This document shows, piece by piece, positions 20,239 through 29,265 of a stretch of DNA of 39,422 bases. Under the pieces are notes generated by a model. The model ran no database searches. It was not told the origin of the DNA and worked only from the letters and a program-made list of their open reading frames with translations. The DNA lies in NCBI GenBank assembly GCA_009912575.1, contig WNDP01000023.1:1-39422 (forward strand), read 5' to 3'. Both the position numbers and the translations under genes were made by a program. The stretch is from Acinetobacter bereziniae (GTDB taxonomy: Bacteria > Pseudomonadota > Gammaproteobacteria > Pseudomonadales > Moraxellaceae). Numbering within the stretch: position 1 is the stretch's first letter; every line of letters starts with the position of its first letter.

Positions 20239-21114
20239 TTAATTTAATTTTATATTTTTATTATTCCCCTCAGAGCCTTTATAGCTTAAGTTATATTTAC
20301 TATCGATCGCATAGCTTTCTCCAAGATTATAAACTTCAATCTTTGGCTTTATTTTAATCAAATAGAAATAAGCCGTCGATCCATCATCTGTGTCATGATA
20401 TTTTTCACCAATCATAAACTGTGAACTTCCGATTTCAGGGATAAATTTAACTCCATCTAAATTTAAATTATTAATTTTATTTTGGCTTAAAATCGCATAA
20501 ATTTCTGGTGATCTATTTTTCACATCTTTCAAACTATATACATGATTTTCCAAATCACTTAACTTCTCACACTTGCTTTGAGAATTACTTCTTAAACACT
20601 TTGAAAAGTAACTTGAGGCATTAGGAATTAATATCTTTTTTAAGTTGCTTTCTTTATTAATTTTGGATAAATTTTCAGAAATATTTCTTTTTACAAAACT
20701 TCCATTTATCATCTTGAAACATAACTTTGAATTACTGTAATCATCTCTATATGCATAAAAATCGCCTGTAACACACAAGCTATCATTATTCACCGAATAA
20801 TCAAATTTAGACTTATAATCTATTTGATACTTTAAAGGGTAGACCTTTAAATCCTTCTGATTAAGTGCAACTATTCGATAATACTTTCCATCATTGATTT
20901 TAATTATCGTATAATTCTTATTGAAATCCACTTTATTTCCAACATTTTTCTTATATAAGTCTAATTTATCCGCTTTGCAATAATAATTACCTATATCATA
21001 ATCGAAACCACAAGGTTCAACTTTTAATACCGCATCCTTTCCAACTGATTTTGCACTACAACCTGTAATACCAATTAAACTTAAAAATACTAATATACAA
21101 AACTGTTTTTTCAC
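20239..21114 (-). CDS. Lipoprotein, candidate T6SS immunity protein
   Basis: This 291-residue protein has a lipoprotein signal (KKQFCILVFLSLIGITGC). No ATG is available: GTG 21114 precedes KKQFC, and GTG 21126 is an alternative. The mature part has several cysteines and an AT-rich codon use unlike the housekeeping genes. Two segments resemble the protein at 21466: an N-KxYxII...YRI stretch and a PEIYAILS-like stretch. Its position at the end of a VgrG-effector cluster and its periplasmic location suggest immunity to a wall- or membrane-targeting effector. That role is inference. The GTG at 21126 overlaps the stop of a 35-codon remnant. Confidence 0.65.
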   Translation of the reverse strand: MKKQFCILVFLSLIGITGCSAKSVGKDAVLKVEPCGFDYDIGNYYCKADKLDLYKKNVGNKVDFNKNYTIIKINDGKYYRIVALNQKDLKVYPLKYQIDYKSKFDYSVNNDSLCVTGDFYAYRDDYSNSKLCFKMINGSFVKRNISENLSKINKESNLKKILIPNASSYFSKCLRSNSQSKCEKLSDLENHVYSLKDVKNRSPEIYAILSQNKINNLNLDGVKFIPEIGSSQFMIGEKYHDTDDGSTAYFYLIKIKPKIEVYNLGESYAIDSKYNLSYKGSEGNNKNIKLN

Positions 21115-21122
21115 TCGCCATC

Positions 21123-21230
21123 TCACTTTTTTTGCTGTTGATGATATTGATAGGTTTTTTCTAGAATTTGCTTAACTTTTTTCGTAGAATCTGGATTTTC
21201 ATGATTAGCTGTACTTTCATAATATAACAC
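21123..21230 (-). pseudogene. 35-codon C-terminal remnant of an unknown gene
   Basis: On the minus strand a frame from GTG 21230 to TGA 21125-21123 encodes a hydrophilic peptide (YESTANHENPDSTKK, then KQILEKTYQYHQQQKK). An in-frame TAG lies just before the GTG. It looks like the end of a longer protein whose front was lost, and its stop overlaps the possible GTG start of the lipoprotein gene. It could also be a small real gene. The rest of the 340-base gap up to 21465 is very AT-rich and holds no other frame I can support apart from the terminator at 21426. Confidence 0.45.
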
Positions 21231-21465: not shown

Positions 21466-22206
21466 TCACTTTATTTGTTGAATTTGCATAAAACCTTCAT
21501 TACATTCAAGAATTGAACCCTTTAAATCCTCACATTTAATTTTATTATTTTTCATTAGCTTGAATCTAAATCCATTGTTAATTTTATGTCCTGGCTTAAA
21601 TTCTTTTGATAAAACCGCCCAAATAGTAGGATTATTCTGCTCATATATGGAATCTACATTATACGTATTTAAAGAATCATCTAAAATAATTTTCTTTATA
21701 TAATTTTGATCAAGAGAATTATAATCGTACTGACAATTTTTATTACGAGACACATTTGTGTCATTTATTTTAACAACAGCAATTTCTTTTGCTTTCTTAT
21801 TGAAAATATAAAATTTCTTTATAATATGAAAATCCCCTCTTAAAATATTTTCCGTATACTCTACAAAACCGATAAAATTTTCATCAGAAAAGTAAGGTGA
21901 AATAATGTATCTATTCAAACCATATATTTTGTTTTTATCTAAAGTATATGAAATATCTCCTTTTCTCAAAATAATTCTGTAAGAATTAACACCATTATCT
22001 TCAAAATTCAAAGCATTTTCTTTAGTAATAATTTCATAGTCTTTATCTATTTTTACAGACTGACCAAGTCCATTAATATTTTTATAGTCTTGAGAAATAC
22101 CAATATTAGAATCATCATAAAGAATAATATTTTTCGCCTGCAAAAGGCTTGGTATCAACAGAGCTAATATTAAAAATATCCTCCTAAAATACATATCTAC
22201 TCTCAT
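21466..22206 (-). CDS. Secreted protein, candidate T6SS immunity protein
   Basis: This 246-residue protein starts near 22206 (MRVDMYFRR) or at an in-frame ATG at 22194 (MYFRR). A signal peptide ends LLQAKN. The mature part is Lys/Asn/Ile-rich, beta-like, with three cysteines. It shares a DKDYEII...YRI segment and an (I/P)xIxAVLS segment with the lipoprotein at 20239, so the two look like distant paralogs. Its own terminator follows. Periplasmic location beside a peptidoglycan-targeting effector suggests immunity, but no family is recognised. Confidence 0.65.
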   Translation of the reverse strand: MRVDMYFRRIFLILALLIPSLLQAKNIILYDDSNIGISQDYKNINGLGQSVKIDKDYEIITKENALNFEDNGVNSYRIILRKGDISYTLDKNKIYGLNRYIISPYFSDENFIGFVEYTENILRGDFHIIKKFYIFNKKAKEIAVVKINDTNVSRNKNCQYDYNSLDQNYIKKIILDDSLNTYNVDSIYEQNNPTIWAVLSKEFKPGHKINNGFRFKLMKNNKIKCEDLKGSILECNEGFMQIQQIK

Positions 22207-22486: not shown

Positions 22487-22951
22487 TTATGGAGCGTTAG
22501 AATTACGTATTTCTAACATTTCATTGCAACTCTTAGAATCTGAATAAACAAAAATCCTCTGGTCTTGGTTTTCTAATAAAATAGCATCCTTATCAGCACC
22601 AAAGGCATTTTTAGAGACATCACACTTATAGGATTGCAGCTTAAAATTTTTGACCACTTTACATTTCGGCTCAGCAACAGCTTCATCAAAACCATACCAT
22701 TCTGTAATATTTTGATTCGAGCAAGAAATTTGACTTGTTTGAACACTATCTTTTGTCAGAGCCACATTATCTGCTACTACTTTTGATTCATTTACAGGTA
22801 AAACGTCATTTGTAGTTGAAGATTGTTGTTCATGCACATCTGCTTGCATTACTTTTGGTTCGTTGTTTGAACTACTTTGTGGTTTATCTTGGTTTTTATC
22901 GCTACATGCAATTAAAGCACTTATAAAAATTAGGATATAAATATTCTTCAT
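22487..22951 (-). CDS. Lipoprotein next to the effector, candidate immunity
   Basis: This 154-residue protein has lipobox LIAC (Cys16), then a low-complexity Ser/Gln/Asn/Val linker to about residue 75, and a compact C-terminal domain with cysteines in ISCSNQ, EPKCKV, YKCDVS and SKSCNEM that could form disulfides. It starts 10 bases after the effector stop, so it is almost surely co-transcribed. A tethered small Cys-rich domain in the periplasm is a plausible inhibitor of the effector's wall hydrolase. No family is recognised; function is inferred from position. Confidence 0.7.
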   Translation of the reverse strand: MKNIYILIFISALIACSDKNQDKPQSSSNNEPKVMQADVHEQQSSTTNDVLPVNESKVVADNVALTKDSVQTSQISCSNQNITEWYGFDEAVAEPKCKVVKNFKLQSYKCDVSKNAFGADKDAILLENQDQRIFVYSDSKSCNEMLEIRNSNAP

Positions 22952-22961
22952 GGCTGAATGC

Positions 22962-25352
22962 TCATAATGATGCGCTATCTAAAAATGGTGTTGGATCAAT
23001 TAAATCCGAACGCCGTTTATATACACTTGTTCCGCTTAAAGTGCCTTTATTATTTGGATTTGAGTACATTTCCAAATGCAACATCATACTTGGAATACCT
23101 TTTGTTGTTAAGCTACCAACATGAGCAATTACCTGACCTTTTACAACTTTATCTCCAGCTTTTACTAAAGCCTTACCTTTTTTGACTTCGCCATAGCGAA
23201 TGATATGCTTTTGATGGACTATCTCAATGGCATCAGTATTGTCATAAAAGTAGTAAACATTTTTTACAACACCATCTGCCATTGCTCTAATTTCTGTTCC
23301 GGCAGAAGCATAAAGATCACATCCAGCATGTTTTCGTTTTCCCCCACTTCGATTAGAACCAAATCGAGCAAAGCCTTTTTTATAAGAATTTGTTCGAGCT
23401 TTTAGCGGGAATAAATATGACCCATCATCTTTTGGCTTATCTATTCTTATTTCAATGACTGGCATAGGATTTTTTAGAGTGGCGGTATAGAGAATTTGAT
23501 CTTTTCCATTTATATCTACAAGAATTTCTATTTTCTTTCCATCCTCTCCTCTATGTTTTTTTAACCCAACACCATCTTGCCCTGTATAGTGCGTTCTTTT
23601 TGCTCCATTGTAATTTATAGAATACGGAAGGTTCTCTTCCTTTCCTGTTCCTTTATTTATTGTTTTTATAGTGAATGAAACATCACTACCATATTGTTTT
23701 GTTAATGGATTACCATTTTTCTCTGTATGGACATCCTCTGATTTTCCGAGTGAAGGAATAAAATCAATTAAATAATCAACAAAGCTCTCTTCATTCTTAG
23801 CTGGTGTTTCTTTCGCTGGTGCTGTTTTTGCTGGTACTGTCTTCGGAGTATTTGAAGCCACTGGAGGCATCTGTATTATCGTAGCAGCAGAATTTAAGTT
23901 CACATTGATTACTGAAATACTTGGATCATTTCTTAATATCAAAACAGGTTTTTTATTTGAAAGCAACAACTTATACACAAATGCATTTAACATTTTTAAC
24001 TGAATAAAGCCATTAGAATCTGTTGATTTTTCTATCTCTCTACCTCTATATGAGACAAAAAATTTATTATTTTTTACAACTTTACCATTACTATCATGTA
24101 TCTTCAATTTTACGCTTACAAGCCCTAATGGGACTGATATACAACTATTTTCTATTCCTTTAGTTATAGGTATTGTTTTTAATTTTTGATAACCTTTACT
24201 ACCATTTACTAATATATCTAAACTCTCACCCTCTTCCGCAATCAGACCAGTTTTTATTCCTGAACCATCAGAAGTATGTTCTTTGATTTTACCTTTATAT
24301 CTTACAAAAAACTTCATATTCGTGATTTTTCTATTTGTGTCACTTTCTATTATAGATATATCAAATTTTATAGCTTTAGAAGCCTCTGTTTTCACCTCAT
24401 CTTTCTTAGAATCACCTGTTTTCTGTTCAACAACGACTACTTTTTCTTGTTTTAGTTCTGGTTCAGCAGGTTTTTGCAACACAGATTGAACTTTAATATC
24501 TTCACTTACACTTAACTCAATAGATTGCTTTTTATCAGGGGCCTGTGTGATAACTGTCGATTGCTTACCATCTGCTTTAATGACAATTTTACTGCCTGGA
24601 TGTCTAATAATAACAGGCAATAATCCTTGCTCATCTGACTCTGCATTTACAATAAACTTAGATTGTTTAAACTTACCACTGTATTCAGATTCAATAGTTA
24701 CTTTTTTATTTTTTGCTATTTGCCCTATTTGATTTTTTAATGATATATATATTTTCCTGCTACAACAGCTTTCTAAGTCATAATGGTTGAACATATCAAT
24801 ATATTTACTAATATGAACTTTATTCCCATCTGATTCTTTATAGTTTCCCTTAAAACCTGGTACACCTAAAAAAGAACCTAACCCTCCTTCACCAACTAAA
24901 TGAGCCCCTGCAATAGCGCCCGATTCAGTAATTTCAATTCCATTTATAATTTTTCCATAATATTCATTAAAGCTTCTATTTCTTAATCGTTTGCAAAGAA
25001 GATCTATCCATTCTCCAATGATCTGAATTTGCTTAGCAGGGGATTTCAAAAAATCTGACAAAGAATTAACGCCATTGTGCCCAACCCAACCCCCAGTCCA
25101 ATCATTTGCTTTAGTTTTATCAGAATTATTATCCCAATGCTTATAATAGCCAAGATCGATAAGTGCCGCTTCACCAAACTGAAAAAAGCCAATATAACCC
25201 AGAGAGTTTTTTATTTTACTTGCGTCAATGTTTACAGATGCTGTTAAAGGTAGACTTAAATCTGATGAAGATTCTTTTCTTGAAACGGCACAAATAAATC
25301 CATATCGGGTTAATGGATAAGATTTTTGATTTATAGATTTACCATTTTTCAT
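22962..25352 (-). CDS. Putative T6SS peptidoglycan-hydrolase effector (SLT-like plus M23-like)
   Basis: This 796-residue protein has no signal peptide. Residues 15-190 resemble a lytic-transglycosylase/lysozyme-like domain: SRKESSSD with Glu27 as candidate catalytic acid, GYIGFFQF (52-59), and a later AGAHLVGEGGLGSFL. Residues 200-500 and 555-630 hold beta-rich repeats with a recurring F-x-V-x-Y-(K/R)-G-(K/R) pattern, joined by a Lys/Pro/Ala/Thr linker at 502-520. Residues 640-790 form an M23-like (LytM) metallopeptidase domain with HAGCD (His675, Asp679) and LHLEM (His759). It would attack the cell wall of rival bacteria after delivery by VgrG. It overlaps the upstream gene by four bases. 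Domain calls are by eye; the VgrG link is from order. Confidence 0.8.
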   Translation of the reverse strand: MKNGKSINQKSYPLTRYGFICAVSRKESSSDLSLPLTASVNIDASKIKNSLGYIGFFQFGEAALIDLGYYKHWDNNSDKTKANDWTGGWVGHNGVNSLSDFLKSPAKQIQIIGEWIDLLCKRLRNRSFNEYYGKIINGIEITESGAIAGAHLVGEGGLGSFLGVPGFKGNYKESDGNKVHISKYIDMFNHYDLESCCSRKIYISLKNQIGQIAKNKKVTIESEYSGKFKQSKFIVNAESDEQGLLPVIIRHPGSKIVIKADGKQSTVITQAPDKKQSIELSVSEDIKVQSVLQKPAEPELKQEKVVVVEQKTGDSKKDEVKTEASKAIKFDISIIESDTNRKITNMKFFVRYKGKIKEHTSDGSGIKTGLIAEEGESLDILVNGSKGYQKLKTIPITKGIENSCISVPLGLVSVKLKIHDSNGKVVKNNKFFVSYRGREIEKSTDSNGFIQLKMLNAFVYKLLLSNKKPVLILRNDPSISVINVNLNSAATIIQMPPVASNTPKTVPAKTAPAKETPAKNEESFVDYLIDFIPSLGKSEDVHTEKNGNPLTKQYGSDVSFTIKTINKGTGKEENLPYSINYNGAKRTHYTGQDGVGLKKHRGEDGKKIEILVDINGKDQILYTATLKNPMPVIEIRIDKPKDDGSYLFPLKARTNSYKKGFARFGSNRSGGKRKHAGCDLYASAGTEIRAMADGVVKNVYYFYDNTDAIEIVHQKHIIRYGEVKKGKALVKAGDKVVKGQVIAHVGSLTTKGIPSMMLHLEMYSNPNNKGTLSGTSVYKRRSDLIDPTPFLDSASL

Positions 25353-25885
25353 TTATTTAAGTCCTCAAAACTAAATCTCTTAATATCAATTTTTTTATTA
25401 TTGATATATGAGCTTAAAATAGGTTTTAATTTCTCAAAATTACCCAATCCTGGACAACTCAACTCAACACCATTTTTATTTGATTTTTTTGTTGGAGAAA
25501 ACTTATCTTCAAACATATCATAACGACCTAAATTCCTAAAATATGAAAAGTAATTTCCACTGGCATCATTAATGATTCTTATATCACTATGATCATTTTT
25601 CAAATATGCGTAATAAACTTGATATTTATTTTTATCAACTTCAATTACTTCGCACTCTCCTGTTGACATCCATTGATCATCTTTTGGGTTTAAGCCAATA
25701 GTCTTTACAAGTTTTGCTTTATTGGTATCTTCCCAAATTTGTTTACATGGGACTTTAATTTTATTAGTTTTGATACTTTCATTCTTATTTTTGAAGATAT
25801 CCCAAATTTTTTCACAAGCATTTTCTTCAGCAAAAGCTTGGATTGAAATAAATGTGCTCAATACTAATATTAGGCTTCGTTTCAT
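25349..25885 (-). CDS. Secreted protein between vgrG and the effector
   Basis: This 178-residue protein has a signal peptide ending SIQAFA before EENACEK. The mature part has four cysteines (NACEK, VPCKQ, GECEV, LSCPG) and no family that I recognise. It starts five bases after the vgrG stop and overlaps the effector start by four bases (ATGA), so all three are translated together. A signal peptide argues against a cytoplasmic adaptor; a periplasmic immunity protein fits better, though one placed before its effector is unusual. Confidence 0.7.
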   Translation of the reverse strand: MKRSLILVLSTFISIQAFAEENACEKIWDIFKNKNESIKTNKIKVPCKQIWEDTNKAKLVKTIGLNPKDDQWMSTGECEVIEVDKNKYQVYYAYLKNDHSDIRIINDASGNYFSYFRNLGRYDMFEDKFSPTKKSNKNGVELSCPGLGNFEKLKPILSSYINNKKIDIKRFSFEDLNK

Positions 25886-25890
25886 CTCTC

Positions 25891-28800
25891 TTATACTCCA
25901 AATTTATTAAAATCATCTTCTAAGTCATCTTTATATTCATCGTCTAAAGCTTCTTCAAGCTGGCTATGAATTCCATCATCTACTAAATCCCCAGTATCAT
26001 GATTATAAAGATCTTCATCTAATTCCTTTGTAGGTATAATACTTTCATCTTCATTACTACTAATAAATTGAATTTCAACATTATCTGACGAATCACTAAA
26101 TATTCTTGGTGTTCGGCCCATTTCATCCAATATCCCAATATATTCTGTATTCTTTGTTTTGTTTATGACTTTGAATCTAATTTCATCTTTCAAATCTTCT
26201 AAATTAAAAATATCGCCAAAATCAAATCTTCGACTAAATATTCCACTTTCAGGCATTTTTGGCAATTGCGCATTCACTGTTGCCCCACTGGTAAACAAAT
26301 GTTGTCCAGATTTCACCTCAAACTTCCCGCCCGTCTTGATAAAAACACCACTACCATTAACAACCAACTGAGTACCACCAGCTTTTAGATCAATCTCTTT
26401 AGAACTGGTTAACTCGATCTTGTCTTCAGTTGCAATCAGCTTAATCACTTTCTTCGCAATAATTTCAATCAAATCGTCCTGAGCCTGAACTTTGATCGGA
26501 CCCTTTGCAGCATACGCACTTAAACCTTTCTGTGCGGCAAACAAACTAATTTTATCCTGCGCATGACCAACAATATTCTTCTGAGCGCTCATGTTAATCG
26601 AACCATTTGCACTTTCAGCAATATCTTGTGAAGCTTGAAGAATAATGTCTTCTGGTGTGGTTAATGCAATCCCATTTGGCGAAGCCAATAACATCAATGC
26701 TTGACGGAAAATCTTACCTTGTTCTTGTTTGGCGTTGTCGTTGCTTTCTTCCAGACCTTGAGTATAACCCTCCATAAAGCCCTGCAAACTCCCTAAAGCC
26801 TGCAACGGTTTAATTTCAAGTTTGTTCCCCTTATTGAATGTTCCACAAGTACTCATAATGTCAAAGTCTTTAATTTCGACATTGGATAAAACCTTACTCA
26901 CATTACTAATGGATTCAAAAGGATTCGATTTAATATCGTCTTTTAAGCTCGCAAGTTTACCTTTAATGATGTCTGTACCGTGCTCTTCAACGTTTTCAAT
27001 AAATTCTTTTAAGTTTTCAACCGCTTCTTTCGCATCAGAAAAATATTCATTAAATTCATCCACAATGCCTTTTGCATTACCACCCAAAGCACCAATGTCT
27101 TTAATAAACCCACCACAATCTTTTAAAGCATTCAAGGGATCATTACTCACCCCTTCTTTAAATAGATTTAGAGTCGTATTCAATGCCTGTCCTGCACTTT
27201 TTAACTCAAGTGATTGAATGAACTTAGGCAAGCGATTGATAACATTCAATGCATCGGTTTGTTGCTTAACGGCGATCTCACTCAGTACCTTCATGCTTTC
27301 AGCTCCTTGATTCAACAAGGATTGTGCTTGTGCTGCTTCCAAATGGTCTGCAATCGCATTTTCTTGGGCATAAGTTGTAATAAGCATCCCTTTGCCTGCA
27401 CGCATCGCTCCATAAGCATCGGTTCTTAACTCAAAACCTTCGCCACGCCCATTACTGGTTTCTTTATCTTTTGGATGGCTTAAGTTCCCAAGGTTCAGTT
27501 GAGTTGCTGCATGACTACTCTGTAGCTGTGTGCTGATTTGACCTGTTGTGTCATCAAAACGAAGTTGGTTAAACCCTGTTCCTCCCACTTCAGATGAACG
27601 TATACCACTGAGTTTCTTGGTATCAGGAAGTTGTCCTTTGATGTCAAACATCGTTTGATGGCGTTCTGCTTCATGTAAACGTCCCATCACAAAAGGACGA
27701 TCTACGTTGCCATCAAAGAAATCAATCACGACGATTTCACCAATCCTCGGATGAAAACGTGTTCCATAGCCCTCTCCAGCCCATGAGGTTAAAACATCCA
27801 CCCATGCTGAGTCGGTATCGTTATCATTGGAGCCTGCACCACCATCATGACTATTATCATCAGTGCGGGTAAATAGGAATCGAACTTTGATTCGCCCCCA
27901 TTGATCGACATAAATCGTTTCGCCTTGCGGGCCTACCACTTTAGCGCGCTGTGGGAATGCAGATGGTCGATCAGTTAATGGATTGTATTCTGGAACGACA
28001 GGAATTCTACGTCGTACCAAAGATAGCTCATTGGCTTGACGTTGATCTTTAATTAAATGATTCCAGTAATTTAAATTCAGCAATTTAGAAAGCTGATCTT
28101 GCAGTTCTTTCGGTAAATTATTCTGATTGTAGAACGTTTTACCGAGAATCAAGAACTCGCGATCGGAACCTTCATGCTGATCAATTTCTGGATGTTCTCT
28201 CAGCTCAAACCAATAGCCAACCTGAGCATCTCGTACTGAACTGATTGCGGTAAAATATTTGGCTTGTAATTCTTGATATTGAGAAAGCTGTGTATTAAGT
28301 TTATCGACTTGAGCGGAGCTAGAAGCTGTGGTTTGATCTTCACCCTTGAGATCACTGGTCCACGCTGGACTAATGGTCCAAGCTTGTTCTAAACTCAAAG
28401 TCTCATTATCTTGTTGTTCACTATGCTGATGATTGCTAAGTTGACTATCACCCTGATCTTGTGCAAGGTTGTCAGATTGCCAACGTTGCACTTGTACAGC
28501 TGTTGATTGGATTGATCGTTGAGCGATCAAACTGGTAATGGTATCAAATCGTTCAGTTGCATGACTGCGATGAAAACGAATACTGCGTCTAGGCATTGCC
28601 TCATATTGACTATTTTCATCAATCAGTCTTAATTTTTGGGTCTGAATTTGTACAGCGGAAACTGGAACTACACGGTCAGATTCATCAACCAACCAGTTTA
28701 TGCCTTCACTGCGCCATAATCTGGTTAAAAACTCGTAATCCGTTTCGTTTGATTGCATCACAAAAGGACGCACATCATATTGTTTTTTTAAACCGCGGCT

Positions 28801-29265
28801 ATCCAAACTCAGACTAGAAGCAAATAATGCACTTTTAGTTTGCCATTCCTTGAATAAAATTTCAGATATTTCCAAAATACTTTTATTCATGAACACTCGA
28901 CTGTTACGGCGTTTATGCCAAAGGCTCGTCGCATCTTCAAGCGTGAGTTTATAAATACTCAATGCACCGTCACTTTGACCTTGACTTGCACCAGTAATGA
29001 TTCCTGTCGTTCGGTAAAGCTCACCAAAGTCAGTGACTTGGTCAACAGAAACCTGACAACCTATAAATTGTTTTAAAGCGATATGCGCATTGGTTGAAAG
29101 GCAAAGTAATTCTGCTTTCAATCCTTGATTAATATATTGTTGCCCCTGAATGCACTGTAAGAATACACTGCCATTTAAGGCTTGATTTGAGAATTGGACA
29201 TGGATAGCCCTTGTCTGCAACCCTAAACCAAAACTTTCAAGTAAGGTATTAATATTTTTCAACAT
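25891..29265 (-). CDS. vgrG: T6SS spike protein VgrG with C-terminal DUF2345
   Basis: This 1124-residue trimeric spike tip delivers effectors through the type VI secretion tube. Residues 1-430 form the gp27-like hub, 440-540 the gp5-like OB fold (YVDQWGRIKVRF and WAGEGYGTRFHPRIGEIVVIDF), and about 860-1000 a DUF2345 beta region rich in short repeats. An unusually long helical stretch lies at about 640-855, and an acidic tail at 1005-1124. No core T6SS structural genes are in the window, so this is an orphan vgrG cluster. It is the first gene of the minus-strand cluster with the secreted protein and effector behind it. Confidence 0.93.
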   Translation of the reverse strand: MLKNINTLLESFGLGLQTRAIHVQFSNQALNGSVFLQCIQGQQYINQGLKAELLCLSTNAHIALKQFIGCQVSVDQVTDFGELYRTTGIITGASQGQSDGALSIYKLTLEDATSLWHKRRNSRVFMNKSILEISEILFKEWQTKSALFASSLSLDSRGLKKQYDVRPFVMQSNETDYEFLTRLWRSEGINWLVDESDRVVPVSAVQIQTQKLRLIDENSQYEAMPRRSIRFHRSHATERFDTITSLIAQRSIQSTAVQVQRWQSDNLAQDQGDSQLSNHQHSEQQDNETLSLEQAWTISPAWTSDLKGEDQTTASSSAQVDKLNTQLSQYQELQAKYFTAISSVRDAQVGYWFELREHPEIDQHEGSDREFLILGKTFYNQNNLPKELQDQLSKLLNLNYWNHLIKDQRQANELSLVRRRIPVVPEYNPLTDRPSAFPQRAKVVGPQGETIYVDQWGRIKVRFLFTRTDDNSHDGGAGSNDNDTDSAWVDVLTSWAGEGYGTRFHPRIGEIVVIDFFDGNVDRPFVMGRLHEAERHQTMFDIKGQLPDTKKLSGIRSSEVGGTGFNQLRFDDTTGQISTQLQSSHAATQLNLGNLSHPKDKETSNGRGEGFELRTDAYGAMRAGKGMLITTYAQENAIADHLEAAQAQSLLNQGAESMKVLSEIAVKQQTDALNVINRLPKFIQSLELKSAGQALNTTLNLFKEGVSNDPLNALKDCGGFIKDIGALGGNAKGIVDEFNEYFSDAKEAVENLKEFIENVEEHGTDIIKGKLASLKDDIKSNPFESISNVSKVLSNVEIKDFDIMSTCGTFNKGNKLEIKPLQALGSLQGFMEGYTQGLEESNDNAKQEQGKIFRQALMLLASPNGIALTTPEDIILQASQDIAESANGSINMSAQKNIVGHAQDKISLFAAQKGLSAYAAKGPIKVQAQDDLIEIIAKKVIKLIATEDKIELTSSKEIDLKAGGTQLVVNGSGVFIKTGGKFEVKSGQHLFTSGATVNAQLPKMPESGIFSRRFDFGDIFNLEDLKDEIRFKVINKTKNTEYIGILDEMGRTPRIFSDSSDNVEIQFISSNEDESIIPTKELDEDLYNHDTGDLVDDGIHSQLEEALDDEYKDDLEDDFNKFGV

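What the first reader, a model, noticed from the sequence alone, without database searches (positions are those of the whole stretch)
22962..25352. One T6SS-linked protein with two different wall-hydrolase-like domains and a repeat stalk
The protein joins an SLT/lysozyme-like N-terminus (Glu27, GYIGFFQF), several beta-rich repeats and an M23-like C-terminus. Cutting both glycan and peptide from one polypeptide is known for a few T6SS effectors (TseP of Aeromonas, as I recall, with the opposite domain order). I have not seen this order with repeats described.
Basis: partly seen in the sequence, partly recalled or inferred. Interest (0 to 1): 0.75.

Follow-up and report, generated by a model that had tools for sequence, protein, structure and literature searches.

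The report
Double-ended wall-cutting secreted toxin
A bacterial weapon protein appears to carry two different cell-wall-cutting ends on one stalk, and comparison with related genomes suggests that each end comes with its own antidote gene and can be exchanged, antidote included, independently of the other end.

Summary
The 796-aa minus-strand ORF 22962-25352 lies in a vgrG operon of an Acinetobacter genome that encodes a T6SS sheath protein. Residues 1-200 are a divergent SLT/phage-tail-lysozyme-type domain (Glu27, GYxGxFQ conserved); about 201-640 is Ig-like stalk with linkers; 674-765 is peptidase M23 (Pfam 7.5e-14), with E722 and M757 where two histidines are usual.

Cutting glycan and peptide from one effector is already published (Tse4, Tae17, TseP, WHIX double-blade effectors), and Tpe24AB (798 aa, M23; Lewis 2019) is probably this protein in A. 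baumannii.

What was missed is the system around it. The stalk is a chassis matched in 37 of 176 Acinetobacter genomes, carrying at least three N-blade and five C-blade families. In 36 of 36 complete loci each upstream-gene family goes with one N-blade family and each downstream-gene family with one C-blade family, while the two ends are shuffled against each other. DNA mosaics show blade and neighbour gene replaced together. I infer a WHIX-independent double-blade effector with one immunity gene per blade. No activity was tested. Verdict: new variant of a known kind.

The parts
22962..25352 (-). Double-blade effector ORF, 796 aa
   Evidence: relatives
24753..25352 (-). N blade (residues 1-200): SLT/tail-lysozyme-type domain, candidate catalytic Glu27, GYIGFFQ at 52-58
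   Evidence: PHROG 27932; stand-alone relatives over the Pfam SLT cut-off, three of four scanned; conservation; 27 of 176 Acinetobacter genomes
23433..24752 (-). Ig-like chassis/stalk (about residues 201-640), with low-confidence stretches at 284-324 and 489-559
   Evidence: AlphaFold2 strands and pLDDT; Foldseek to Ig-like proteins; chassis profile in 37 of 176 genomes
22965..23417 (-). C blade (residues 646-796): M23 metallopeptidase; H675, D679, H759 kept; E722 and M757 in place of two usual histidines
   Evidence: Pfam PF01551; motif positions; viral-contig relatives 45-47% identical
25349..25885 (-). U gene, 178 aa, exported-type start; proposed immunity protein to the N blade; overlaps the effector start by 4 bases
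   Evidence: family nesting with N blade; partial correlation 0.78; hydrophobic N-terminus; copies without effector
22487..22951 (-). D gene, 154 aa, lipoprotein-like; proposed immunity protein to the M23 blade
   Evidence: family nesting with C blade; partial correlation 0.73; stays with M23 when the N blade differs (L114); lipobox-like Cys16
25891..29265 (-). vgrG, 1124 aa, proposed carrier; its last 110 residues (25894-26223) vary with the chassis
   Evidence: Pfam/NCBIfam; regression over 27 loci: chassis 0.75, N 0.20, C 0.01

Best explanation
It is a cargo effector of the Acinetobacter T6SS built as a double blade. The VgrG encoded two genes upstream carries it, most likely by its C-terminal tail binding the Ig-like chassis. 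In the target periplasm the N blade cuts the glycan strand as a lytic transglycosylase or muramidase and the M23 C blade cuts peptide cross-links. The exported U protein neutralises the N blade and the lipoprotein D neutralises the C blade in the producer and its kin. Each blade is encoded next to its own antidote, so exchange between the conserved vgrG/U-signal region, the chassis and the downstream flank replaces a blade together with its antidote, independently at either end. Shown here: architecture, homologies, co-occurrence, mosaics, antidote-like genes without effectors. Inferred: enzyme activities, T6SS delivery, VgrG binding site, immunity function.
For: M23 over cut-off; SLT-type by PHROG and by stand-alone relatives; VgrG; T6SS sheath protein VipB in the same genome. 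In 36 of 36 complete loci each U family sits with one N-blade family and each D family with one C-blade family, while D2 and D4 occur with two N families each, U1 and U4 with two C families each and U3 with three. On the 14 distinct combinations, shuffled labels nested this perfectly in 3 of 20,000 trials for U in N and 3 of 20,000 for D in C. Partial correlations over 31 loci: N-U given C 0.78, C-D given N 0.73, N-D given C 0.03, C-U given N 0.14. Of 35 locus pairs with strongly unequal N and C identity, U follows N and D follows C in 35. Mosaics L094/L102 and L097/L105; D009-type gene kept in L106. Strongly hydrophobic N-terminus in 34 of 36 U, 36 of 36 D, 1 of 36 effectors. U present in 8 genomes without a detected N blade, one of these copies with stops; six lie in effector-free islands at the same chromosomal site.
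Against: U lies next to N and D next to C, so part of the co-variation could be plain linkage. All simple correlations, N-D (0.34) and C-U (0.42) included, reached the smallest p the Mantel test could give; the contrast rests on the partial values. At looser thresholds concordance drops: 119 of 122, 159 of 170 and 202 of 240 pairs at |N-C| above 0.3, 0.2 and 0.1. The U model (pLDDT 78) has no PDB match at E<=0.001, so it is not shown to be a lysozyme inhibitor. Neither the N-blade profile nor a stand-alone relative matched a solved lysozyme by sequence; three viral N-blade relatives had no Pfam SLT match; no PDB lysozyme is among the 50 shown fold matches, where the stalk dominates. The M23 domain was not modelled (pLDDT below 50 for 626-796) and lacks two usual histidines. 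No biochemical data.
Confidence: 0.75

Rival explanations
1. U is not an immunity protein but an adaptor or chaperone that loads the effector through its N-terminal domain onto VgrG; only D is immunity.
For: U lies between vgrG and the effector, the usual place of adaptors (established knowledge), and co-varies with the N-terminal domain.
Against: U has a strongly hydrophobic, export-type N-terminus in 34 of 36 loci. U genes occur without vgrG or effector in six islands (L084-L089), two of which also hold a D gene and one a U018-type gene. The VgrG tail follows the chassis (0.75) rather than the N blade (0.20). In WHIX loci an upstream immunity gene had been misread as an adaptor (PMC12135965 passage).
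Confidence: 0.12
2. Only one blade is a live weapon: the M23 domain, with E722 and M757 in place of two usual histidines, is a degenerate wall-binding or regulatory domain (as in EnvC), and the lytic transglycosylase does the killing.
For: Motifs YGEV and MMLHLE instead of YAHL and HLHFE; some PDB and NCBIfam matches are to EnvC, a regulator.
Against: The best PDB match is to lysostaphin, an active M23 enzyme (activity is established knowledge). The same variant motif is conserved in all five distinct C-blade copies of this type fetched here and in stand-alone M23 proteins of 156-160 aa on viral contigs, so it is a maintained subfamily. The blade keeps its D gene when the N blade differs (L114) and as an orphan C blade (L115), which an inactive domain would hardly need.
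Confidence: 0.15
3. The U-N and C-D associations reflect only physical linkage in a recombining locus and say nothing about cognate immunity.
For: Genes are adjacent; exchanged tracts are contiguous.
Against: No U-N or C-D separation at family level in 36 loci although N and C are shuffled. In the clearest mosaic one breakpoint is inside U after the signal-peptide part, so mature U moves with the blade while vgrG stays. A D009-type gene is retained beside a different blade (L106), and U and D families persist without effectors.
Confidence: 0.12

Closest known systems
WHIX double-blade effectors (Awe1, Aeromonas jandaei; PMC12135965: abstract, section 6 and passages seen)
   Same: Two wall-targeting domains on either side of a central loading module; immunity genes upstream and downstream matched to N and C domain; VgrG C-terminus needed; polymorphic.
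   Different: No WHxxxH motif, nor even WH, in 23 of 23 effectors checked; chassis is Ig-like; found here in Acinetobacter, Psychrobacter and Neisseria; in Awe1 the M23-type domain is N-terminal, here M23 is C-terminal.
Tse4/Tpe4AB of A. baumannii ATCC 17978 (Le et al. 2021; paper not held, seen only through citing papers)
   Same: Lytic transglycosylase plus endopeptidase in one vgrG-linked effector with an M23 domain.
   Different: Group 4 has LysM and ASG repeats (PMC6833914 passages); no LysM found here by Pfam. Sequences and domain order could not be compared.
Tpe24AB (Lewis et al. 2019 Table 1, PMC6833914; passages and section 18 seen)
   Same: 798 aa, peptidase M23, NlpD, PRK11649, no LysM listed: fits this protein (796 aa; weak PRK11649 match), and probably is its A. 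baumannii form.
   Different: No lytic transglycosylase domain, second immunity gene or modular exchange reported in the passages I read; sequence not available to me.
Tae17 of A. baumannii AB307-0294 (PMC11796386: abstract, passages, section 8 seen)
   Same: Bifunctional, contains lytic transglycosylase and an Ig-like domain predicted to meet the VgrG C-terminal region with its transthyretin-like domain.
   Different: Order Ig-like, LysM, transglycosylase, amidase; Tae3/CHAP-type amidase rather than M23.
TseP of Aeromonas dhakensis (PMC11893102: listing, abstract part and passages seen)
   Same: Peptide- and glycan-cutting domains in one effector.
   Different: N amidase, C lysozyme; one immunity protein, TsiP, known to neutralise the lysozyme, is reported to inhibit the amidase as well.
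Effector displacement and immunity arrays in Vibrio cholerae (PMC5361080: title and abstract start in a listing only)
   Same: Effector genes displaced in succession, leaving arrays of immunity genes.
   Different: Here exchange is per blade within one protein and possible at both ends.

Membership tests
WHIX double-blade effector | WHxxxH motif in a bipartite WHIX domain | tested here: not met
   0 of 23 family effectors checked contain WH
WHIX double-blade effector | Toxic domains on both sides of a central module | tested here: met
   By sequence only:
WHIX double-blade effector | Two cognate immunity proteins required | tested here: inconclusive
   Co-occurrence and partial correlations support it; no protection assay
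SLT/GH23 lytic transglycosylase | Recognisable SLT profile | tested here: inconclusive
   No direct Pfam hit; stand-alone relatives, 38-41% identical over the matched N-blade segment: three of four scanned pass the SLT cut-off (30.8, 32.5, 25.9 against 21.3 bits), the fourth has 18.1; three viral relatives none
SLT/GH23 lytic transglycosylase | Catalytic glutamate in an ES motif | tested here: met
   E27 invariant in 25 family sequences; ES in 5 of 5 stand-alone relatives
Peptidase M23 | Pfam M23 over cut-off | tested here: met
   52.1 bits against 28.7
Peptidase M23 | Canonical YxH and HxH histidines (recalled pattern) | tested here: not met
   YGE and MLH instead; a variant shared with M23 proteins on viral contigs
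Tse4/Tpe4AB | LysM domain | tested here: not met
   No LysM at E up to 1
VgrG cargo effector | Encoded in a vgrG operon and delivered by that VgrG | tested here: inconclusive
   Gene order fits; VgrG tail follows chassis; delivery not testable
Polymorphic toxin | Conserved carrier with exchangeable toxin domain and co-exchanged neighbour gene | tested here: met
   at both ends; that the neighbour confers immunity is inferred

The most novel reading that the evidence does not exclude
A WHIX-independent class of two-sided polymorphic T6SS effectors: an Ig-like chassis bound by a co-varying VgrG tail carries any of at least three N blades (glycan-cutting type) and five C blades (peptidase or amidase type). 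The gene order antidote-blade-chassis-blade-antidote lets one exchanged tract swap a toxin with its antidote at either end without exposing the cell to an unmatched blade, leaving orphan antidotes behind as defence.
Probability: 0.6. Interest if true: 0.72.

Novelty: new variant of a known kind. Interest (0 to 1): 0.6.

Why it matters
If true, it shows that double-blade effectors exist on a chassis without the WHIX motif, and it explains how two toxin-immunity pairs in one protein can evolve separately: each blade sits beside its antidote with conserved arms on both sides. It predicts which immunity protein blocks which blade and which VgrG tail carries which chassis, and it gives natural chimeras (for example L114 and L200) that test those predictions. 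It may also turn some effectors listed as having no conserved domain into candidate wall hydrolases.

Tried and rejected
WHIX membership was tested by motif and rejected. A known inhibitor fold for U was sought with AlphaFold2 plus Foldseek and not found. A PDB sequence match for the N blade was sought and not found (best E 0.051, to a protein of no evident relation; none for one stand-alone relative). Whole-protein fold searches were dominated by the Ig stalk; in the viral library a 225-aa "Peptidoglycan-binding" protein of Tenacibaculum phage pT24 matched over 197 columns at 28% identity (E 1.8e-7, TM 0.50 on the target), a size that fits the N blade, though the answer does not say which residues it covers. 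Anti-phage defence was considered: no PADLOC match at E up to 0.01 for effector, U or D. Le et al. 2021 (Tse4) is not held, so its domain order stays unchecked.

Rows dropped before counts: of 37 chassis-bearing Acinetobacter genomes four were left out of the 36-locus table: two effectors split by insertions (G203/L093, G093/L116) and two weak matches (G213/L201, G008/L202). The other 33, plus two Psychrobacter loci and one Neisseria locus, make the 36; I matched A. bouvetii L155 to genome G200 by position only. The second Neisseria locus (L146, contig too short to hold a D gene) was left out. The correlation test used 31 of these 36 (not L119 and L197-L200), the VgrG-tail regression 27 (four VgrG ORFs were fragments). 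The Pfam pass over stand-alone relatives took four of five, over viral N-blade relatives three of ten, over viral M23 relatives two of five; the M23 alignment took four of the five viral loci.

Full report
What is there. The reported interval is one intact ORF on the minus strand, 796 aa. The genes read vgrG (25891-29265), a 178-aa protein with an exported-type start, here called U (25349-25885), the effector (22962-25352) and a 154-aa lipoprotein-like protein here called D (22487-22951); U and the effector overlap by four bases, so they look like one operon. The genome is an Acinetobacter by its nearest named relatives, A. rongchengensis (92%) and A. pittii (90%) over the full length. It encodes a VipB sheath protein. 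The locus lies between an oxaloacetate-decarboxylating malate dehydrogenase gene and a Dyp-type peroxidase gene. Repizo et al. list malate dehydrogenase as an anchor of one vgrG neighbourhood (PMC6838775 passages).

N blade. Pfam does not recognise residues 1-200. PHROG 27932, "baseplate hub subunit and tail lysozyme", matches the three members of this N type that I scanned (E 1.7e-12, 8.3e-14, 2.4e-8). Stand-alone proteins of Aromatoleum and a Burkholderiales bacterium are 38-41% identical to the N blade over the matched segment; of four scanned, three pass the Pfam SLT cut-off and the fourth reaches 18.1 against 21.3 bits. All five stand-alone proteins have a Glu-Ser motif before the GYxGxFQ motif, as Glu27-Ser28 here. 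Ten viral contigs hold further relatives; three of them scanned with Pfam gave no SLT match. AlphaFold2 models the domain as mainly helical, pLDDT 84-95 in 17 of its 20 ten-residue blocks. I conclude SLT/lysozyme-type; the exact reaction is inferred.

Stalk. The model shows beta-sandwich-like strand sets at about 200-283, 327-410 and 411-485 with good confidence and a weaker one at 550-626, with linkers of low confidence. Foldseek's best PDB matches are Ig-like pilins, adhesins and macroglobulins.

C blade. Pfam M23 at 674-765; best PDB sequence match lysostaphin, then EnvC. The same variant, with 45-47% identity over the blade, is found in 156-160-aa stand-alone M23 proteins on viral contigs; the two scanned pass Pfam M23. 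So it is a maintained subfamily rather than a decaying copy; activity remains to be shown. AlphaFold2 did not model this domain.

A chassis with exchangeable ends. A profile of the stalk matches 37 of 176 Acinetobacter genomes, two of them weakly; Psychrobacter and Neisseria also carry it. N-blade families are the SLT type, a second type without a Pfam hit to a wall hydrolase (N018, by eye SleB-like), and Pfam glucosaminidase. C-blade families are M23, a family with the histidine/aspartate pattern of M15/MepA-type peptidases (by eye), a VanY/M15-like type (Pfam below cut-off), a further M15-like type (by eye), and CHAP (Pfam below cut-off). In all 36 complete loci each upstream-gene family occurs with one N-blade family and each downstream-gene family with one C-blade family (families by single linkage at phmmer E 1e-4). 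The ends are shuffled: D2 sits with M23 under both N1 and N2 (window and L114), D4 under N2 and N3 (L197-L199 and L200), U1 with C1 and C2, U3 with C2, C3 and C4, U4 with C3 and C5. With labels shuffled among the 14 distinct combinations, such nesting arose in 3 of 20,000 trials for each side; combinations are not fully independent, so this is a guide only.

Within families the same holds by distance (31 loci): N-U 0.82, C-D 0.77, N-D 0.34, C-U 0.42. All of these reached the smallest p of the permutation test; the contrast is in the partial correlations, N-U given C 0.78, C-D given N 0.73, N-D given C 0.03, C-U given N 0.14. In 35 of 35 strongly contrasting pairs U follows N and D follows C; at looser thresholds 119 of 122, 159 of 170 and 202 of 240. 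DNA comparisons show the tracts (100-base windows). L094 and L102 are 86-100% identical in the part of vgrG shown and 94-98% in the start of U, drop to 42-63% from about U codon 60 to effector residue 238, and return to 94-100% from residue 272 through the C blade and D. L097 and L105 are 92-100% identical from the part of vgrG shown to residue 627, then 35-61% from residue 661 through C blade and D. In L106 relative to L095 a different C blade with a D010-type gene is present, and the D009-type gene is still found downstream of it.

Antidotes without weapons. U occurs in 29 of 176 genomes and the N blade in 27; 21 have both, eight have U only (one of these copies with internal stops), six have the N blade only; of these, five fit loci with the divergent U2 family and one is split by an insertion. 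Six U-only regions (L084-L089) lie between genes whose protein starts match the same malate dehydrogenase and peroxidase genes, with no vgrG or effector between them; two of the six also hold a D gene and one a U018-type gene. D occurs in 24 of 176 genomes; in the 14 regions fetched for D alone (L121-L134) none carried this M23 blade. An orphan M23 blade with a D gene follows a vgrG fragment in L115.

Loading. Over the 27 loci with a long VgrG ORF, the last 110 residues of VgrG follow the chassis (standardised weight 0.75), weakly the N blade (0.20) and not the C blade (0.01). In Tae17, an Ig-like domain is predicted to meet the C-terminal region of VgrG17 with its transthyretin-like domain (PMC11796386 section 8). 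I infer that the chassis is the loading platform here.

Comparison with what is known. Bifunctional wall-cutting effectors are known: Tse4 and Tae17 in A. baumannii, TseP in Aeromonas, and the WHIX double-blade class with two immunity proteins. This family lacks the WHIX motif (0 of 23 effectors checked), and the window protein lacks LysM. Lewis et al. list Tpe24AB (798 aa, M23) and the domain-less groups 11 and 25 (787 and 825 aa) at vgrG loci of the wall-targeting cluster; size and domains make Tpe24AB the likely A. baumannii form, and groups 11 and 25 possible sister chimeras, but I could not compare sequences. In the listings of my literature searches and the passages I opened, I saw no description of an Ig-like double-blade chassis or of two blade-specific immunity genes in Acinetobacter; most subscription papers and all preprints are outside the library.

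Limits. No activity, delivery or protection was tested. Co-variation of adjacent genes can come partly from linkage. The signal-peptide and lipobox calls are simple heuristics (34 of 36 U and 36 of 36 D with a strongly hydrophobic N-terminus, 1 of 36 effectors; lipobox-like motif in 27 of 36 D). U has no recognised fold relative.

Noticed in passing
window 21466-22206 and 20239-21126 (minus strand): Two more proteins with exported-type starts by eye (246 and 295 aa) follow D before the next conserved gene; no family match above a curated cut-off where searched. They may be further orphan immunity genes.
   Followed up: partly
G000, 18 matches on 15 contigs: The window's genome has 18 Phage_GPD (VgrG-type) matches, some of them fragments; Repizo et al. 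give an average of 2.79 vgrG genes per Acinetobacter genome.
   Followed up: no
L120:6865-8769: A different Acinetobacter vgrG-linked protein with LysM, then M23, then a Pfam phage lysozyme at the C-terminus: peptide cutter before glycan cutter, without a match to this chassis.
   Followed up: no
L093 and L116: Effector genes of this family interrupted, with transposase-like ORFs (by eye) between the pieces; described only.
   Followed up: no
L085-L089, for example L086:8510-8959: A similar exported-type protein of 143-155 aa accompanies U in five of the six effector-free islands (by eye); no NCBIfam match for the L086 copy and no Pfam match for the L085 copy. Possibly a third immunity type.
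   Followed up: partly
L162-L166: Stand-alone relatives of the N blade in beta-proteobacteria; the four scanned carry a C-terminal DUF3262-like segment (two over, two under the cut-off), and no VgrG match was seen around the five.
   Followed up: partly
L106 (6112-7175): A D009-type gene remains downstream of a different C blade and its D010-type gene, probably a record of a displaced antidote.
   Followed up: yes
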